This document shows, piece after piece, positions 7,157 to 47,052 of a stretch of 64,000 nt of DNA. Made by a program: the position numbers and the translations under genes. The notes beneath the pieces were generated by a model, which had not been told where the DNA came from, did no database searches, and saw only the letters and a list, made by a program, of their open reading frames with translations. The stretch spans positions 62,001-126,000 of the forward strand of contig DUMA01000004.1 of NCBI GenBank assembly GCA_012840135.1, read 5' to 3'. Source of the stretch: Thermoanaerobacterales bacterium (GTDB taxonomy: Bacteria > Bacillota > Thermosediminibacteria > Thermosediminibacterales > Tepidanaerobacteraceae). Position 1 is the first letter of the stretch; the number at the start of each line of letters is the position of its first letter.

Positions 7157-7312
7157 GGGATTTCAGACCGTTGATAAACTCACTTGGCCCGCATGTATTA
7201 TGGAGCGGGACTAGTTTCGCTCAGCCGTCGGCAGCTCTGCTGCCGCAAACGGCGTGCGAGCGTGTCCGTAGCGAAATAATACATGCGGGCTTTGTCTATA
7301 AGCTGAAATCCC
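7157..7312 (-). repeat. Palindromic intergenic repeat, copy A
   Basis: Outer arms GGGATTTCAG (7157-7166) and CTGAAATCCC (7303-7312) enclose an inner inverted repeat: GCCCGCATGTATTAT (7187-7201) against ATAATACATGCGGGC (7276-7290). The core contains GGCAGCAGAGCTGCC-like sequence in reverse complement. It is clearly related, in opposite orientation, to copies B (24026-24210) and C (37361-37487). No open frame encodes a transposase. It lies between cbiN and the acs promoter. Confidence 0.85.
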
Positions 7313-14069: not shown

Positions 14070-14241
14070 ATTTTTAAGATTATAAAATTAACATATCTTC
14101 GATTTATACCGGCCTGCAATGAGGTCCGGCCGAATTGCCGGTGTGACCCTGCGAAGCCGGGGATCGAACTTTAGAACATCCGGCTGAACGGTTAGGTGAC
14201 AGGTCATCAAAATCACCTGCAAGGAAAGGTGGAGTATAAAA
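14070..14241 (+). promoter_or_regulatory. Structured leader upstream of metV
   Basis: A 172-base gap within an otherwise tight operon. Stems seen: ACCGGC (14108-14113) with GCCGGT (14137-14142), AGCCGG (14155-14160) with CCGGCT (14180-14185), and AGGTGA (14194-14199) with TCACCT (14213-14218), the last just before the ribosome binding site. It matches no riboswitch class I can recall with confidence, including the THF riboswitch. Confidence 0.4.
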
Positions 14242-19004: not shown

Positions 19005-20366
19005 ATGGCTTTAAACGGCATGGAAATATACAAGATGCTACCCAAGAAAAATTGCAAGGAATGCGGTTTTCCCACATGTCTTGCCTTTGCCATGAAACTG
19101 GCCCAGGGAGGAACTCAGGCGGAAAAATGCCCTTATATGTCAGATGATGCCAGGGCCAAACTGGAAGAAGCCACAGCACCGCTCATGAAGACCGTAAAAT
19201 TCGGAACTGGAGACAGAATATACTCACTGGGAGGGGAAACGGTTCTTTTCAGGCATGAAAAGACCTTTGTGAACAAACCCAGGTTTGCAGTGATGTTTGA
19301 TGATGGTATGAACGAAGATGAGGTCACTAAAAAAATTAATAATATAAATTCCGTAAATTACACCAGAATCAGTGAAGAAATGTTTGTAGAAATTGCCGCC
19401 TTCAGATGTTCAACGGGTGACAAGCAAAAATTTATTTCCTTAATTAAAAAAGTTGTACAATCCTGCAGCAAAGTTATACCCATGATTATTACCGAGGATA
19501 CCGAAATAGCGTCTGCCGCTGCTGAAGAGTTTTCAAGCCTCGGTCCCATTCTTTACGGTGCCAATGAACAAAATTATGAGACTATGGTAAGTATAGCAAA
19601 GAAATACAACCTCCTTTTGGGAGTGAAAGCCCCGGATCAGGCAAATCTTTACGATCTTGTCCAAAAGATACAGAACTCAGGTTACAGGGAATTGCTTCTT
19701 GACGCCGGTGGCAGGAATTTGAAGACGGCCTTTGACGACGTGGTCAATATGAGGCGGACGGCGCTCCTTTCCCAGGACAGGACCTTCGGCTATCCATCGG
19801 TGGCTTTTGTCTGCGATATGACAAAAGACAAGATGATGGAGGTCGCTATGGCAACTCTATTTGTTGAAAAATACGCTTCCATCATAGTGCTGAACGATAT
19901 GGATTATTCCATGGCTCTGCCCCTCTTCGCTTTGAGACAGAATATTTATACCGATCCGCAGAGGCCCATGAGAATAGAACAGGGCATCTACAGGATCGGC
20001 CAGGCCGATGAGAAGTCTCCGCTTCTCGTAACGGTGGACTTCGCCCTCACCTATTTCATAGTTTCCGGCGAAGTTGAGAGGTCAAAGGTGCCAGCATGGA
20101 TCCTTATACCCGATGCAGGGGGATATTCAGTGCTTACCGCATGGGCTTCTGGCAAGTTCAATGCAAAGAGCATCGCAAAGGCAATAAAGGATTTTGAAGT
20201 AGAAGGCAAGCTGAAGACCAGGGAACTGATTATTCCAGGCAAAGTGGCAGTTTTAAAATCCGACATAGAAGATGAACTGTCGGGCTGGAAGGTCATAGTT
20301 GGAACCCGGGAAGCCGCTGCCCTGCCAGCCTTCCTGAAGGACTACCTGCAGGAAAGGGCATCTTAG
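19005..20366 (+). CDS. acsC: Corrinoid iron-sulfur protein large subunit AcsC
   Basis: Large subunit of 453 residues. An N-terminal [4Fe-4S] domain has LPKKNCKECGFPTCLAFAM and a further Cys in AEKCPYM; a TIM barrel follows, then a C-terminal corrinoid-binding domain ending in KVIVGTREAAALPAFL. The start is the ATG at 19005, 8 bases after AAGGAG; an in-frame ATG at 18999 touches the SD. The cluster supplies the low-potential electron for Co(II) to Co(I) reduction. Confidence 0.95.
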   Translation: MALNGMEIYKMLPKKNCKECGFPTCLAFAMKLAQGGTQAEKCPYMSDDARAKLEEATAPLMKTVKFGTGDRIYSLGGETVLFRHEKTFVNKPRFAVMFDDGMNEDEVTKKINNINSVNYTRISEEMFVEIAAFRCSTGDKQKFISLIKKVVQSCSKVIPMIITEDTEIASAAAEEFSSLGPILYGANEQNYETMVSIAKKYNLLLGVKAPDQANLYDLVQKIQNSGYRELLLDAGGRNLKTAFDDVVNMRRTALLSQDRTFGYPSVAFVCDMTKDKMMEVAMATLFVEKYASIIVLNDMDYSMALPLFALRQNIYTDPQRPMRIEQGIYRIGQADEKSPLLVTVDFALTYFIVSGEVERSKVPAWILIPDAGGYSVLTAWASGKFNAKSIAKAIKDFEVEGKLKTRELIIPGKVAVLKSDIEDELSGWKVIVGTREAAALPAFLKDYLQERAS

Positions 20367-20371
20367 GTGGT

Positions 20372-20431
20372 TGTGACGTGCCTTTGGCCGTCACGAACCA
20401 CAAAAGCCAGGGTTTTTACACCCGTATCAAT
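20372..20431 (+). repeat. acs intergenic leader repeat, copy 1 (before acsE)
   Basis: GTGGTTGTGACG (from 20368) pairs with CGTCACGAACCAC (20390-20402) with one bulge, and the loop closes by GCC-TTT-GGC. The shared core reads GTGCCTTTGGCCGTCACGAA, then CACAA, a TTTTTACACCCGTATCAA segment, and the acsE ribosome binding site. It is closely similar to sequences before acsB, gcvH and the gene at 26303. Confidence 0.8.
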
Positions 20432-20453
20432 TATATGTCAGGAGGAATAGCGT

Positions 20454-21239
20454 ATGGCCAGATTTTTGACCATAGGGGAACGGATTCACGTAATATCCCC
20501 AGTTATAAGAAAAGCTCTTCAAGAAAGGGACCCGAAGCCCATTATAGATAGGGCAAGGGAACAGGTGGAGGCGGGAGCCCATTACCTTGATGTCAACATA
20601 GGCCCTGCGGACAGGGACGGGGAGGAACTTATGCCATGGGTTGTCAAACTGCTGCAGCAGGAATTTCCCAATACTCCACTTTGCTTAGATACCGCTAACA
20701 CAAAGGCCCTGGAAGCAGGAATCAAAGTTTATGACCGTAAAGCCGGCAAGCCCATCATAAATTCGGCTGATGCCGGTTCAAGGATCGGTATGATTGATCT
20801 GGCGGCACAATACGATGCCATGGTTATAGGCCTTTGCGCTAAAGAAGGCATACCACGGGACAATGACGAGAGGATCCAGTACTGCACCGAAATCCTCGAC
20901 AGGGCGATGTCGGCAGGGCTTGACCCCGAAAACATTCTGTTTGATCCGCTTTTCGTTGTAGTAAAGGGAATGCAGGATAAACAGCAGGAAGTTCTGGAAG
21001 CACTGCGCCAGATTACCGAAATGGGCTTCAAGACCACCGGTGGCCTCAGCAATGTTTCCAATGGCTGTCCAAAGGAATTGAGGGGACTGATTGAAGCTAC
21101 GTTCTGCGCCATGGCCATTCAGTGCGGCCTGACTTCGGCCATCATTAACCCATGCAACAAGATGCTGATGGATATCATCAAGACTGCGGATGTGATAAAA
21201 GGCAGAAACCTCTACTGCGACTCATACCTGGAGTTATAG
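20454..21239 (+). CDS. acsE: Methyltetrahydrofolate:corrinoid iron-sulfur protein methyltransferase
   Basis: MeTr of 261 residues, a (beta/alpha)8 pterin-binding protein moving the methyl of methyl-THF to Co(I) of AcsCD. HYLDVNIGPADRDG contains the folate-binding Asp/Asn region, NSADAGSRIG, DPLFVVV and TTGGLSNVSNGCPKE follow, with the Asn important for N5 protonation in the last. SD GGAGG precedes the ATG. It is placed between acsC and acsB. Confidence 0.95.
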   Translation: MARFLTIGERIHVISPVIRKALQERDPKPIIDRAREQVEAGAHYLDVNIGPADRDGEELMPWVVKLLQQEFPNTPLCLDTANTKALEAGIKVYDRKAGKPIINSADAGSRIGMIDLAAQYDAMVIGLCAKEGIPRDNDERIQYCTEILDRAMSAGLDPENILFDPLFVVVKGMQDKQQEVLEALRQITEMGFKTTGGLSNVSNGCPKELRGLIEATFCAMAIQCGLTSAIINPCNKMLMDIIKTADVIKGRNLYCDSYLEL

Positions 21240-21282
21240 TTTATTGTTGCCCGAAAAGGAGGTGTGTCCCCTTACCTATTAT

Positions 21283-21345
21283 CGGTGCTTTTGGCCGTCC
21301 CGAACCACAAACGCCAGAGTCTTACACCAATATCAATAATAAATT
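21283..21345 (+). repeat. acs intergenic leader repeat, copy 2 (before acsB)
   Basis: GGTGCTTTTGGCCGTCCCGA, ACCACAAACGCC and TCTTACACCAATATCAATAA align with copies 1 and 3, ending just before the acsB ribosome binding site. The upstream arm that would complete the copy 1 hairpin is missing here. Confidence 0.75.
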
Positions 21346-21361
21346 TAAGGAGGAGTGTATC

Positions 21362-23485
21362 GTGAGCTTATTCGACATTATATTTACCGGGGCCGAACAG
21401 GCTCTGGCAGCCTGCAAGTCTGCTGTGGAAAAGACTATAGCGGAACTGGGAGATAACGAAAAGGTAGTTTTTCCGGGCACTGCCTACAGCCTACCCACCA
21501 TTTATGGAGCCACAGGCAAAAAGATAAATACCCTGGGAGATTTAAAGGGTGTCATCCCAATAATAGAAAGCCTCATAGTGAAGGAACAAAATCTGGAAAA
21601 AGCCCTGAATGCCGGTCTTGCCACCGCCGTAGCGGCGGAGGTTATAGAGGCCTGCAAGTATACAGGAGGTAAGGAGCCTTATTCGGAACCCTGCAGCGGG
21701 TTTGTTCCTGATACAGTGATCCGTTCCCTGGGAGTCCCTCTGGTGACCGGAGATATTCCCGGCGTGGCTGTAGTCATAGGTGAAGCACCATCCGGGGAAG
21801 AAGCTGCAAAGGTCATAAAAGGCTATCAGGCAAAAGGCCTTCTGGTTTTCCTGGTAGGCAAGGTCATAGACCAGGCAGTAGAGGCCAAAGTGAAGATGGG
21901 CCTGGAGCTTCGGGTCATACCTCTTGGGTATGATATTACTTCGGTCATCCATGTGGTGACTGTGGCCATAAGGGCCGGCTTGATCTTCGGAAACGTGCAG
22001 CCCGGAAATCTTGCTGAACTTCTCAAATACACAAAAGAAAGGGTGCCAGCCTTTGTAAACGCTCTGGGCCCCTTGAGCGAGCTTGTTGTGTCAGCCGGAG
22101 CCGGGGCCATAGCGTTAGGATTCCCTGTAATTACCGACCAGGATGTACAGGAAGTGCCCGGAAACCTCATTGTTCAGAAAGAATACGATAAAATGGTAGC
22201 GACATCGCTGGAAGCCAGGGGGATCAAAATAAAAATAACGGAAATACCTATTCCCGTAGGGTTTGCTGCAGCCTTCGAAGGGGAGAGGGTGAGAAAAGAC
22301 GACATGTTTGCCGAATTCGGTGGAGGCAGGACTACTGCCTGGGAACTTGTAAAGATGAGGGACCTGTCGGAGATTGAAGATCACAGGATTGAAGTTATAG
22401 GTCCCGACCTGGATACCCTGGAGCCCGAAGGCGGCAGGCTTCCCCTGGGGATACTGGTAGAAGTGGCCGGAAAGGGCATGCAGCAAGACTTTGAACCTGT
22501 CATGGAAAGAAGAATACATTATTTTGCCAATTACACCGAGGGTGTTATGCATCTGGGCCAGAGAGACATCATATGGATAAGGATCAGCAAATCCACCTTT
22601 GAGGCAGGTTTCAGATTGAAACATATCGGTGAAGTCCTCTATGCTAAAATACTGGATGAATTTGGCAGCATTGTGGATAAAGTTCAGGTTACTTTGATAA
22701 CCGATAAAGAAAATGTAGAAAAACTGCTGGATGAAATTGCAAGGCCCAGATATGAGGCAAGAGACGCCAGACTCGCAGGCCTTACCGATGAGAGTGTAGA
22801 TGCATTTTACTCCTGCCTGCTGTGCCAGTCCTTTGCACCTGCCCATGTGTGCATAGTAACTCCTGAAAGGCTGGGGCTCTGCGGTGCCGTGAGCTGGCTG
22901 GACGCCAAAGCCACTAAGGAATTGAACCCCACCGGCCCATGTCAGCCCATTGTGAAGGGAGAATGCAATGATGAGGTTAAAGGCAGCTGGGATTCCGTAA
23001 ATAAGGCCGTTTCGGAACTTTCCCATGGAGCCACCACCAGAGTCAATATTTACACCATCATGGAAGACCCCATGACATCATGCGGCTGTTTCGAATGCAT
23101 CTGCGGCATCATGCCCGAAGCCAACGGAGTTATCATAGTAAACAGAGAATACGCCGGAATGACGCCGCTTGGCATGACCTTTGGAGAATTGGCCTCCACT
23201 ACGGGAGGAGGCGTACAAACACCTGGATTCATGGGCCACGGCCGGCAGTTTATAACTAGCAAAAAGTTCTTATACGCCGATGGTGGCCTTGCCAGGGTAG
23301 TCTGGATGCCCAAAGAATTAAAAGAGGCTCTCAAAGAAAAGCTGGAACAGAGAGCCAAAGAAATAGGCATAGAAAACTTCTTCGACATGATAGCCGATGA
23401 GACAGTCGGCACCGATCCCGATGCGGTAGTTGAATTTTTGACGAAAGTCGGCCATCCGGCTTTGACCATGGACCCGATGCTGTAG
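21362..23485 (+). CDS. acsB: Acetyl-CoA synthase catalytic subunit AcsB
   Basis: ACS of about 707 residues, joining CO, methyl and CoA to acetyl-CoA. The A-cluster ligands are visible: SCLLCQSFAPAHVC and RLGLCGAVSW bind the [4Fe-4S], and SCGCFECICGIMPE contains the Cys-Gly-Cys motif of the distal nickel. The start is GTG at 21362 with AAGGAGGAG upstream; the open frame to 21152 overlaps acsE and crosses the repeat. Bacterial full-length type, with the N-terminal domain that contacts CODH. Confidence 0.96.
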   Translation: MSLFDIIFTGAEQALAACKSAVEKTIAELGDNEKVVFPGTAYSLPTIYGATGKKINTLGDLKGVIPIIESLIVKEQNLEKALNAGLATAVAAEVIEACKYTGGKEPYSEPCSGFVPDTVIRSLGVPLVTGDIPGVAVVIGEAPSGEEAAKVIKGYQAKGLLVFLVGKVIDQAVEAKVKMGLELRVIPLGYDITSVIHVVTVAIRAGLIFGNVQPGNLAELLKYTKERVPAFVNALGPLSELVVSAGAGAIALGFPVITDQDVQEVPGNLIVQKEYDKMVATSLEARGIKIKITEIPIPVGFAAAFEGERVRKDDMFAEFGGGRTTAWELVKMRDLSEIEDHRIEVIGPDLDTLEPEGGRLPLGILVEVAGKGMQQDFEPVMERRIHYFANYTEGVMHLGQRDIIWIRISKSTFEAGFRLKHIGEVLYAKILDEFGSIVDKVQVTLITDKENVEKLLDEIARPRYEARDARLAGLTDESVDAFYSCLLCQSFAPAHVCIVTPERLGLCGAVSWLDAKATKELNPTGPCQPIVKGECNDEVKGSWDSVNKAVSELSHGATTRVNIYTIMEDPMTSCGCFECICGIMPEANGVIIVNREYAGMTPLGMTFGELASTTGGGVQTPGFMGHGRQFITSKKFLYADGGLARVVWMPKELKEALKEKLEQRAKEIGIENFFDMIADETVGTDPDAVVEFLTKVGHPALTMDPML

Positions 23486-23496
23486 AGGAAAAGGCA

Positions 23497-23632
23497 TGGA
23501 TCCGTGCATGTCGCCCCTGCTTCGCTTGTTTCAAGCTTAAGAACGTCTTTGGCTTCACTCTACGGTGCCTTTGGCCGTCACGAATCACAAGCGACGAAGT
23601 TTTTACACCCGTATCAAATTTTAAATACGATA
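23497..23632 (+). repeat. acs intergenic leader repeat, copy 3 (before gcvH), longest form
   Basis: Begins GGATCCGTGCATGTCGCC and continues through CAAGCTTAAG to the shared core GGTGCCTTTGGCCGTCACGA (from about 23564), then CACAAGCGACGAAG and TTTTTACACCCGTATCAA. CTTCGCTTG (about 23520-23528) can pair with CAAGCGACGAAG. The full length aligns with copy 4 at 26164. Confidence 0.8.
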
Positions 23633-23644
23633 GGAGAGATGCAC

Positions 23645-24019
23645 ATGGAATTTCCATCTAATATCAAATATCATCCCGAACATACCTGGGCAAGGGTAGA
23701 AGGAGATACAGCCATCATCGGCATAACCGAATACGCTCAGGACCAGTTGGGTGAAATACTTTTTGTGGATCTGCCGGACAAGGGAAAGAAAATAAAACAG
23801 GGAGAAGTTTTCGGCAGCGTTGAATCCGCCAAGGTGGCATCGGATCTTTTTACACCGGTGAGCGGTGAAGTAATAGAAGTAAATACAGAGTTGAGCGATA
23901 GTCCCGAACTGGTTAACGAATCCCCCTATGAAAAGGGCTGGATGTTGAAGGTAAAAATGGATGATGTTAAAGAATTGGAAAAATTAATGGACAGCAGTTC
24001 TTACAAAAAGAGTTTATAG
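23645..24019 (+). CDS. gcvH: Glycine cleavage system H protein
   Basis: Lipoyl carrier of 124 residues. The lipoylation motif GSVESAKVASDLFTP holds the modified Lys near residue 63, and YHPEHTWARVEGD and ITEYAQDQLGEI are typical. It shuttles aminomethyl groups and electrons between GcvP, GcvT and LpdA. The ATG at 23645 is 8 bases after AGGAG; the one at 23639 is too close. It is last in the acsE-acsB-gcvH run and precedes repeat copy B. Confidence 0.95.
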   Translation: MEFPSNIKYHPEHTWARVEGDTAIIGITEYAQDQLGEILFVDLPDKGKKIKQGEVFGSVESAKVASDLFTPVSGEVIEVNTELSDSPELVNESPYEKGWMLKVKMDDVKELEKLMDSSSYKKSL

Positions 24020-24025
24020 TTTATG

Positions 24026-24210
24026 CAGGTCACTTTTGGAAAGTGGCTTCAGTTTTCAGACAAAGCCCGCATGATATTTGCTACGGATGCACTTGTGCCA
24101 TTTGTGGCAGCAGAGCCGCCGACAACCGGGCAAACCATGCCCGCTCCATAATGCATGCGGGTTAAATGGTTTGTAAGCGGTCTGAAGCCATTTTAATAAA
24201 AAGTGACCTG
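24026..24210 (+). repeat. Palindromic intergenic repeat, copy B
   Basis: Outer arms CAGGTCACTTTT (24026-24037) and AAAAGTGACCTG (24199-24210), then TGGCTTCAG (24044-24052) and CTGAAGCCA (24182-24190), surround inner arms AGCCCGCATG (24064-24073) and CATGCGGGTT (24154-24163). The core matches copies A and C. The outer arms pair with each other but differ from those of copy A. It probably also acts as a terminator for gcvH. Confidence 0.85.
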
Positions 24211-24240
24211 TAAAACATTTTTTATTGGGGCGGGGTGGCC

Positions 24241-26163
24241 ATGAGGAAATTTACCGTGTATTTTAAAACTCCGGGGAAAACTGTGGAAGTGGAAAAAGGT
24301 GCAAGTCTCATGGATGCGGCGCGGAAAGCCGGGGTGTTTGTAGATGCACCGTGCGGTGGCAAGGGTCATTGTGGCAAATGCAGGGTAAAAGTGCTCTCCG
24401 GAGAAAATCGGTACCGGCCTTCACACTTGCTCACCCAGGAAGAATTGAATCAGGGGATAAGGCTCGCCTGCCTTACAGAGGTAGAAGGCGACATGACGGT
24501 GGAACTGGTGCAAACCGATACTATAAATGATATAATAGTGGAAGATATCACCTCCAATTTCGATAACCATTCTAGAGTGAAAAGGGCCATTGAGGTACTG
24601 GAAAAATCGGGAATAAAAATTAAAAACAGTTTCGACACAATCAGAATCAAACTTAACGAGCCAACCCTGGATGACAATATTTCTGACTTTGACAGGATAT
24701 TGAAAGAGTTGGGATTCATAGTAAAGTCCGGTGAACTGTCATGCCCTGTGGAAGTGTTCAGAAAGATGCCCCGGATAATCCGGCAAGCCGGTTTTGATGT
24801 AGGCCTTGTGCTCCGTAAAGAACAAAAGGCGTATGAAATTCTGGATATTACAGCCCAAAAGGACAAGAAAATATACGGCCTCTGCGTGGATGTAGGTACC
24901 ACTACCGTAGCATCGTGCCTGGTAGATCTCTCCACCGGCAGGATAGAAGCATCGGCCAGCTGCGGAAATCTGCAGATGCAGTACGGAGGAGATGTCATTA
25001 GCAGAATCATTTATTCCACTGAGCCCGGAGGTCTTGAAAAACTACAAAAGGCAATAGTTTACGGCACCGTCAACAAATTGATAGAAAAGATGGTGCATAA
25101 ACTGGGTTGCAACCATGAAGACATAGTATGTTCGGCCATTGCCGGCAATACCACGATGGCTCATCTTTTCCTCGGTATACCTGTAGAGAATATAAGGCTC
25201 GAGCCCTACATACCGGTCTTCAAGAATTTCCCGGTGTTTAAAGCAAAAGATGTAGATCTTGGGATAAATCCCAATGCCACTGTTTATATGCTCCCCAATG
25301 TGGCAAGCTATGTGGGTGGAGATATAGTTTCAGGAGTCCTGGCATCGGGTCTCTGGAGTAGTGATGAAATCACCCTTTTTATGGACCTGGGCACTAACGG
25401 AGAACTGGTGCTGGGCAATAGGGAATGGATGGTGGCGTGCGCCTGTTCCGCGGGTCCGGCCTTCGAGGGAGGAGATATAAGCTGCGGCATGAGGGCGGCA
25501 CCGGGCGCCATCGATGAGGTCAGGGTTGATGCCAGAACCTTCGCACCCGCTATTAAGACCATCGGCAATACCAAGCCTTCTGGTATTTGCGGATCCGGCC
25601 TCATAGACCTCATAGCTGAGATGTTCCTTTCAGGAATTATCGATGGAAAGGGCAGAATAAAGCAAAACACCCGTAATCGTAGAATAAGGTTTAACCGTGC
25701 CGTCGGATGCTGGGAATATTTGCTGGTGTCCGGGAAAAACACATCCGACGGTAGGGATATAACGATAAATGAGATTGACATAGACAATTTCTTGAGGGCA
25801 AAAGGTGCCGTTTATTCCGGGATAAAGACAATGCTAAACAGTGTCGGCATTGACATGGGAGATATTGAAAAGGTCATAATCGCCGGAGGAATAGGCCAGA
25901 ATCTCGATATTGAGAGCTCCGTAAGAATAGGTTTGCTGCCCGATATAGACCGGGGCAAGTTCGAGTTTATAGGAAACAGCTCCTTAACAGGAGCCTATCT
26001 GTGCATAGTCAGCGAAGAAGCCCGACAAAAAGCCGGGCAGATAGCTGATATGATGACATATATTGAGCTTTCTGCCGACCCGGCATATATGGAAGAATTC
26101 GTCGGCGCCTGCTTCTTGCCCCATACCGATTTGAGATTGTTTCCCAGCGCAAGCGCCATATAG
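24241..26163 (+). CDS. acsV: Corrinoid activation protein AcsV (reductive activator of CFeSP)
   Basis: Protein of about 640 residues. An N-terminal ferredoxin domain with DAPCGGKGHCGKCRVKV and a fourth Cys in LACLTEV binds [2Fe-2S]. The large C-terminal ASKHA-type ATPase region has VDVGTTTVASCLVDL, AIAGNTTMAHLFLGI, FMDLGTNGELVLG and VIIAGGIGQNLDIE. Such proteins use ATP to drive reduction of inactive Co(II) corrinoid to Co(I). The start is ATG at 24241; GTG at 24235 is possible. Confidence 0.9.
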   Translation: MRKFTVYFKTPGKTVEVEKGASLMDAARKAGVFVDAPCGGKGHCGKCRVKVLSGENRYRPSHLLTQEELNQGIRLACLTEVEGDMTVELVQTDTINDIIVEDITSNFDNHSRVKRAIEVLEKSGIKIKNSFDTIRIKLNEPTLDDNISDFDRILKELGFIVKSGELSCPVEVFRKMPRIIRQAGFDVGLVLRKEQKAYEILDITAQKDKKIYGLCVDVGTTTVASCLVDLSTGRIEASASCGNLQMQYGGDVISRIIYSTEPGGLEKLQKAIVYGTVNKLIEKMVHKLGCNHEDIVCSAIAGNTTMAHLFLGIPVENIRLEPYIPVFKNFPVFKAKDVDLGINPNATVYMLPNVASYVGGDIVSGVLASGLWSSDEITLFMDLGTNGELVLGNREWMVACACSAGPAFEGGDISCGMRAAPGAIDEVRVDARTFAPAIKTIGNTKPSGICGSGLIDLIAEMFLSGIIDGKGRIKQNTRNRRIRFNRAVGCWEYLLVSGKNTSDGRDITINEIDIDNFLRAKGAVYSGIKTMLNSVGIDMGDIEKVIIAGGIGQNLDIESSVRIGLLPDIDRGKFEFIGNSSLTGAYLCIVSEEARQKAGQIADMMTYIELSADPAYMEEFVGACFLPHTDLRLFPSASAI

Positions 26164-26285
26164 ATCCCTGAATGCTCTACTTTATCTTTTGCATCAAGCT
26201 AAGGGACCAATCCTGGCTTTGCCATATGGAGGCTTTGGCCGTCTAACACCATCGACGAGTTTTTAAAAAGAATAGATCTATAGTT
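26164..26285 (+). repeat. acs intergenic leader repeat, copy 4 (degenerate)
   Basis: GATCCCTGAATGCTC, GCATCAAGCTAAGG, GGCTTTGGCCGTC and ATCGACGAGTTTTTA align in order with copy 3 over about 120 bases. More diverged than the others. It ends shortly before the ribosome binding site of the gene at 26303. Confidence 0.65.
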
Positions 26286-37360: not shown

Positions 37361-37487
37361 AAAGCCCGCATGATATTTTGCTACGGCCACGCTCGCACGC
37401 CGTTTGCGGCAGCAGAGCTGCCAGCATCTGAGAAACTAGGCCCGCTCCATAATACATGCGGGCTAAGTTAGTTTGTTGGCGTCTGAA
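37361..37487 (+). repeat. Palindromic intergenic repeat, copy C
   Basis: Inner arms AGCCCGCATG (37363-37372) and CATGCGGGCT (37455-37464), with core GCACGCCGTTTGCGGCAGCA followed by GAGCTGCC, nearly identical to the reverse complement of copy A. The left outer arm is missing; the right side ends in GTCTGAA. It sits between convergent livF and the minus-strand amidohydrolase. Confidence 0.85.
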
Positions 37488-46875: not shown

Positions 46876-47052
46876 TGTTTTGGGTGTAAAAAATCGTTTT
46901 ATGCAGCCAGACATCCTGGCATTTACGTTCAGCAAGACATTCTGTCGCTTTCCTTTGCTCCGCAGGTTGCGGTAATTATGCCTTGCCGCCGGCCGGTTGC
47001 ATCCGTGCATGCCGCTATAATATATGCTGATGGTTCTGCAAGCGATAAAAAA

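What the first reader, a model, noticed from the sequence alone, without database searches (positions are those of the whole stretch)
20368..26285. A repeated structured leader precedes acsE, acsB, gcvH and a small acs-cluster gene
Seen: near 20372, 21283, 23497 and 26164 the gaps between acs genes share a core (TGCCTTTGGCCGTCACGAA, CACAA, TTTTTACACCCGTATCAA) ending just before the next ribosome binding site. Copies 3 and 4 align over about 120 bases. Copy 1 forms a 12-bp hairpin and copy 3 can pair CTTCGCTTG with CAAGCGACGAAG. Inference: a cis RNA element used serially in one operon, for example as processing, stabilising or translation-control site that sets subunit ratios, or a small repeat that spread within the operon.
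Basis: partly seen in the sequence, partly recalled or inferred. Interest (0 to 1): 0.72.

Follow-up and report, generated by a model that had tools for sequence, protein, structure and literature searches.

The report
Mobile hairpin repeats invading acs operon
The "repeated leader" between the acetyl-CoA-pathway genes is a set of decayed copies of a small transposon-like DNA hairpin found at some 40 places in this genome, so it is an ordinary mobile repeat, although it is unusually concentrated in this one operon.

Summary
The repeats are real. Copies 1-3 match a profile trained only on non-acs copies at E 3e-20 to 5e-14; copy 4 is a weak, decayed member (E 0.004). They are not an acs-specific leader. 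The same element occurs about 40 times across the genome and in sister genera of Tepidanaerobacteraceae. Full-length copies are about 260 bp, non-coding and palindromic. Their ends are inverted repeats (GATTYNGGTGTAAAAA), and 7 independent insertions have exact 6-bp target duplications: a MITE. An IS1182-like insertion sequence with the same ends lies in this genome, its transposase broken by a stop. In relatives the acs gaps are mostly short and empty (acsC-acsE is 36 nt in the congener and keeps the same ribosome-binding site), so the element was inserted into existing gaps. All four acs copies have lost the left end; only copy 1 folds better than shuffles. The insertion shared with the congener (copy 4) is 65-69% identical, below third-codon identity of the neighbours. 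Both strands fold equally, so nothing points to selection on the RNA. Left over: significant clustering in the acs operon (about 0.001-0.01) and invasion of the same operon by two other repeat families. An ERIC-like RNA-processing effect is possible but untested.

The parts
20367..20430 (+). Copy 1, acsC-acsE gap: internally deleted MITE, short left-arm remnant (GTGGTTGTGACG) plus intact right end
   Evidence: R1 57.4 bits, E 6.7e-17; 12-bp hairpin z -2.3; congener gap is 36 nt without it, same SD
21254..21336 (+). Copy 2, acsE-acsB gap: subtype with AAAAGGAGGTGTGTCCCCTTACC interior (as at L043), left terminus missing
   Evidence: R1 48 bits, E 5.5e-14; L110/L111 carry other remnants in the same gap
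23493..23617 (+). Copy 3, acsB-gcvH gap: right half of the element (query positions 137-261), left half missing
   Evidence: blastn 88% over 125 nt; R1 68.2 bits, E 2.7e-20
26170..26272 (+). Copy 4, acsV-orf79 gap: heavily decayed right half; orthologous insertion well preserved in congener G001
   Evidence: R1 13.2 bits, E 0.004; G001 copy at model 144-260, E 3.9e-26; 65-69% identity to it
14106..14218 (-). Fifth copy in the same operon, folD-metV gap, opposite orientation; relatives have 12-31 nt there
46876..47014 (+). Further degenerate copy in the window
   Evidence: blastn 69%, E 1.7e-5
24042..24210 (+). Unrelated palindromic repeat (family B, about 20 genome copies) in the gcvH-acsV gap, inserted into a hairpin conserved in relatives

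Best explanation
The four 'leaders' are decayed insertions of one MITE family: a non-coding palindromic element of about 260 bp with GATTYNGGTGTAAAAA inverted ends and 6-bp target duplications, present in Tepidanaerobacteraceae. A DDE transposase related to the IS1182 family probably moved it in trans. Copies landed in the only permissive sites of the operon, between a stop codon and the next Shine-Dalgarno sequence, then lost their left ends and drifted. Shown: dispersal, inverted ends, target duplications, element-free orthologous gaps, arm co-variation across copies, and an IS with matching ends in the same genome. Inferred: that this IS type moved the family, and that the acs copies now have little or no function beyond being transcribed spacers.
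For: About 40 copies genome-wide (42 blastn hits; 47 profile hits, 34 at E<0.01); present in 7 other genomes of the family, one weak hit outside it. Exact 6-bp duplications at L020 AATATT, L021 AAAGAT, L022 AAAATT, L035 AAATTT, L060 AAGGTT, L066 AAATTT, L069 ATTTTT. Element-free orthologous sites outside acs and in acs. Hairpin arms co-vary: 56 doubly changed cells against 22.8 in shuffles. Both strands fold equally, summed MFE -1922 and -1948, so no strand preference. An IS with the same ends and a PF13751 / IS1182-like transposase in G004 and, with one stop, in this genome. Strong acs copies are closest to non-acs copies. Orientation relative to co-directional neighbours is about 17:12.
Against: Four same-strand copies in 5.9 kb is more clustering than uniform insertion gives (about 0.0008-0.01), and two other repeat families also sit in this operon. 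The two-ended IS copy in this genome shows a 9-bp, not 6-bp, flanking repeat, and only the outer ~16 bp match the MITE. About half of the two-ended copies have no exact duplication.
Confidence: 0.93

Rival explanations
1. The copies began as MITEs but have been co-opted: transcribed hairpins in the polycistronic acs mRNA act as RNase or stabilising sites that tune subunit ratios, as ERIC and NEMIS or SRPS stem-loops do.
For: All four copies lie between co-directional acs genes just before an SD; clustering beyond chance; copy 1 has a stable hairpin right after the acsC stop. ERIC transcripts alter stability of upstream genes (PMC2229807); SRPS stem-loops set operon stoichiometry in clostridia (PMC8219983).
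Against: Three of four copies do not fold better than shuffles; most relatives run the same operon without them; the shared copy 4 drifts faster than third codon positions; no strand preference of fold.
Confidence: 0.08
2. An acs-specific ancestral cis RNA leader (riboswitch- or processing-type) used serially in the operon.
For: Repetition in four gaps of the operon before the ribosome-binding sites.
Against: About 40 unrelated genomic sites; absent from most acs gaps of congener and family; no Rfam match.
Confidence: 0.01
3. Local duplication or gene conversion copied one insertion along the operon.
For: Copies 1 and 3 share the exact end TTTTTACACCCGTATCAA.
Against: Copies 1, 2 and 3 are each closer to copies outside acs (0.89-0.91) than to each other (0.79-0.87); they retain different parts of the element and different subtypes.
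Confidence: 0.03

Closest known systems
ERIC / IRU and NEMIS / Correia elements (bacterial MITE-like palindromic repeats)
   Same: Non-coding palindromic dispersed repeats in intergenic, transcribed positions; described in PMC2229807
   Different: No direct sequence comparison made; different inverted ends and a different host phylum; 6-bp target duplications here; no RNA effect shown
IS1182-family insertion sequences (parent candidate)
   Same: The transposase of the IS with matching ends has NF033551 as best hit and a PF13751 domain
   Different: 132 bits, below the curated 270-bit cut-off; an IS1182 member captured in Paracoccus made 4-bp duplications (PMC3281130), here 6 bp for MITEs and 9 bp at one IS
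SRPS stem-loops of clostridial operons
   Same: Stem-loops between genes of a polycistronic mRNA (PMC8219983)
   Different: No processing data; three of the four acs copies lack significant folding

Membership tests
MITE | Short non-coding element with terminal inverted repeats | tested here: met
   About 260 bp, ends GATTYNGGTGTAAAAA in inverted orientation
MITE | Target-site duplication | tested here: met
   Exact 6 bp at 7 independent insertions; absent or imperfect at the others
MITE | Many dispersed copies | tested here: met
   About 40 sites in 3.18 Mb
MITE | Element-free orthologous sites | tested here: met
   acsC-acsE, folD-metV and three non-acs sites
MITE | Ends shared with an autonomous element that can mobilise it | tested here: inconclusive
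   IS with matching ends found, but its transposase has one stop here and is split in G004; outer ~16 bp only
MITE | Observed transposition | not testable with these tools
   Needs a bench assay
IS1182 family (candidate parent) | NF033551 score at or above curated cut-off 270 | tested here: not met
   132 bits as full-length read-through; still the best hit. Called IS1182-like, not a member
IS1182 family (candidate parent) | DDE_Tnp_1_6 transposase domain | tested here: met
   PF13751 59 bits, cut-off 25
Rfam RNA family | Match to any curated family | tested here: not met
   None, window at gathering or region at E<=1
Selective RNA processing element (SRPS) | Stable stem-loop in the gap with processed 5' or 3' ends | tested here: inconclusive
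   Folding: only copy 1 is significant. Processing not testable here

The most novel reading that the evidence does not exclude
The acs operon of this lineage is a hot spot where three unrelated palindromic repeat families have been inserted and kept in the gaps, because their transcribed hairpins adjust the stoichiometry of the Wood-Ljungdahl enzymes: repeated domestication of MITEs as RNA-processing sites.
Probability: 0.06. Interest if true: 0.62.

Novelty: new member of a known kind. Interest (0 to 1): 0.27.

Why it matters
It removes a tempting but wrong regulatory reading of the acs operon and identifies a MITE family in Tepidanaerobacteraceae that I did not find described in the few papers searched, with ends, target duplication and a candidate parent IS. 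The clustering of three repeat families in one central-metabolism operon is a concrete question for RNA-seq in these acetogens and syntrophs.

Tried and rejected
RNA-level selection: tested by folding both strands of 16 full-length copies; equally stable, so rejected. The RNAalifold G-U excess over A-C was ignored because it appears on both strands. Outward promoter in the right end: one 9-of-12 match at copy 3, and the region as a whole is not above shuffles. C29:28814-33396, two ends 4.6 kb apart, holds no transposase, only genes that look like a 5-oxoprolinase-type cluster. G009:C64:13157-14247, ends 1.1 kb apart, also has no transposase. Local duplication rejected.

Full report
What is there. 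The window lies on contig C22 of a 3.18-Mb genome; database relatives of its acsB are Tepidanaerobacteraceae. The genes are folD, metV, metF, an lpdA-like gene, cooC, acsD, acsC (ends 20366), acsE (20454-21239), acsB (21362-23485), gcvH (23645-24019), acsV (24241-26163) and three small ORFs. FolD, acsC, acsE, acsB, gcvH and acsV have NCBIfam matches; the others are named from their translations.

Genome-wide distribution. The core occurs at C18, C19, C43, C5 and other contigs. One copy on C18, between genes I read as fabF and rnc, is complete at 261 bp. Blastn with it gives 42 hits in this genome. Among 60 relatives it hits 7 genomes of the same family and, weakly, one outside it. A sequence-only profile R1, trained on 17 copies outside acs (A1; R1), gives 47 hits, 34 of them at E<0.01, and recovers copies 3, 1, 2 and, weakly, 4.

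Anatomy. Two-ended copies begin GATTYNGGTGTAAAAA and end with its inverse. With those boundaries, 7 independent insertions have exact 6-bp direct repeats, all A+T-rich. The whole element is an extended hairpin. On 7 full-length copies 29 of 85 pairs show changes on both sides, the covariation score is 0.311 against 0.178 in shuffles, and it collapses when partners are slid. Because the structure was derived from these rows, part of the excess over slid versions is expected. Both strands of 16 copies fold equally well, which points to a DNA palindrome and not to an RNA on one strand.

Insertion history in acs. acsC-acsE is 87 nt here and 36 nt in the congener G001, with the same ribosome-binding site; it is 18-56 nt in several others, and 108-176 nt with unrelated sequence in a few. 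folD-metV is 172 nt here and 12-31 nt elsewhere. acsB-gcvH carries the element only here; G009 and G004 carry another repeat there, and G001 yet another sequence. acsE-acsB has remnants here, in G009 and in G004, while G001 has a different insert. acsV-orf79 has the element here, in G001 and in G009. Three non-acs insertions also have element-free orthologous sites in relatives.

State of the acs copies. All four have lost the left terminus: copy 1 keeps a 12-base piece of the left arm, copy 2 is a subtype with a different interior, copy 3 starts at position 137 of 261, and copy 4 is decayed. Only copy 1 folds better than shuffles. The orthologous copy 4 is 65-69% identical to the congener, below third-codon identity of acsV, orf79, acsB and acsE, 71-76%. 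That is what unconstrained sequence looks like; it is one pair of species, so weak selection is not excluded.

Parent. An element in G004 with the same ends on both sides encodes a PF13751 transposase split by another IS. A homologue (83%) with one in-frame stop lies at C5:5658-6815 of this genome between the same ends, and a fragment on C18 has one such end. The best NCBIfam hit is IS1182, below cut-off. I therefore call it IS1182-like and the probable mover. The 9-bp flanking repeat at the C5 copy does not match the 6 bp of the MITEs, and the shared stretch is about 16 bp, so this link is inferred.

Clustering. Under uniform insertion, at least 4 copies within 5.9 kb has a probability of about 0.0008 for 34 copies and 0.01 for 60. 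Intergenic-only insertion, and the fact that the region was picked because of the repeats, make the true figure less extreme. Strong acs copies are nearest to copies outside acs, so this is repeated insertion. Two other repeat families also occupy gaps of this operon, one here and one in G009 and G004. Tolerance of inserts between stop codon and Shine-Dalgarno, and an accessible, highly transcribed operon, are the simplest reasons; neither was tested. The gene-context count used a crude ORF caller that wrongly extends some ORFs over the element, so it supports only the absence of a strict orientation rule.

Verdict. The element is a MITE by every sequence test that could be run, except proof of a working transposase and of movement.

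Noticed in passing
window 24042-24210; also 7162-7307 and 37361-37487: A second palindromic repeat family (about 21 hits in this genome, few in relatives) sits in the gcvH-acsV gap and twice more in the window.
   Followed up: partly
gcvH-acsV gap: L109, L110, L111, L112, L119; split in window around 24024-24220: A hairpin CAAGCCACTT...AAGTGGCTTG is invariant in five relatives from three genera; in the window the family-B repeat lies inside it. This is a better candidate for a conserved acs RNA element than the finding itself.
   Followed up: partly
L110 7482-7786 and L111 (acsB-gcvH gap): A third repeat family of about 300 bp, multi-copy in G009, G004 and G001, occupies the acsB-gcvH gap of the sister genus.
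   Followed up: partly
window 20361-20378: The acsC stop codon TAG runs directly into the left-arm remnant of copy 1 and could itself be MITE sequence (TTAGGTGGTTGTGACG against TTTTAGGTGATTATGA in L020).
   Followed up: no
L035, and G009:C52:63033-63102, C65:12050-12119, C67:60330-60409: Short derivatives of about 70-80 bp with both ends but almost no interior.
   Followed up: no
L111 acsV-orf79 gap: Contains GGAACCGTCCCCGACTCA-type sequence that resembles REP/RAYT-type repeats seen in Firmicutes (resemblance from memory).
   Followed up: no
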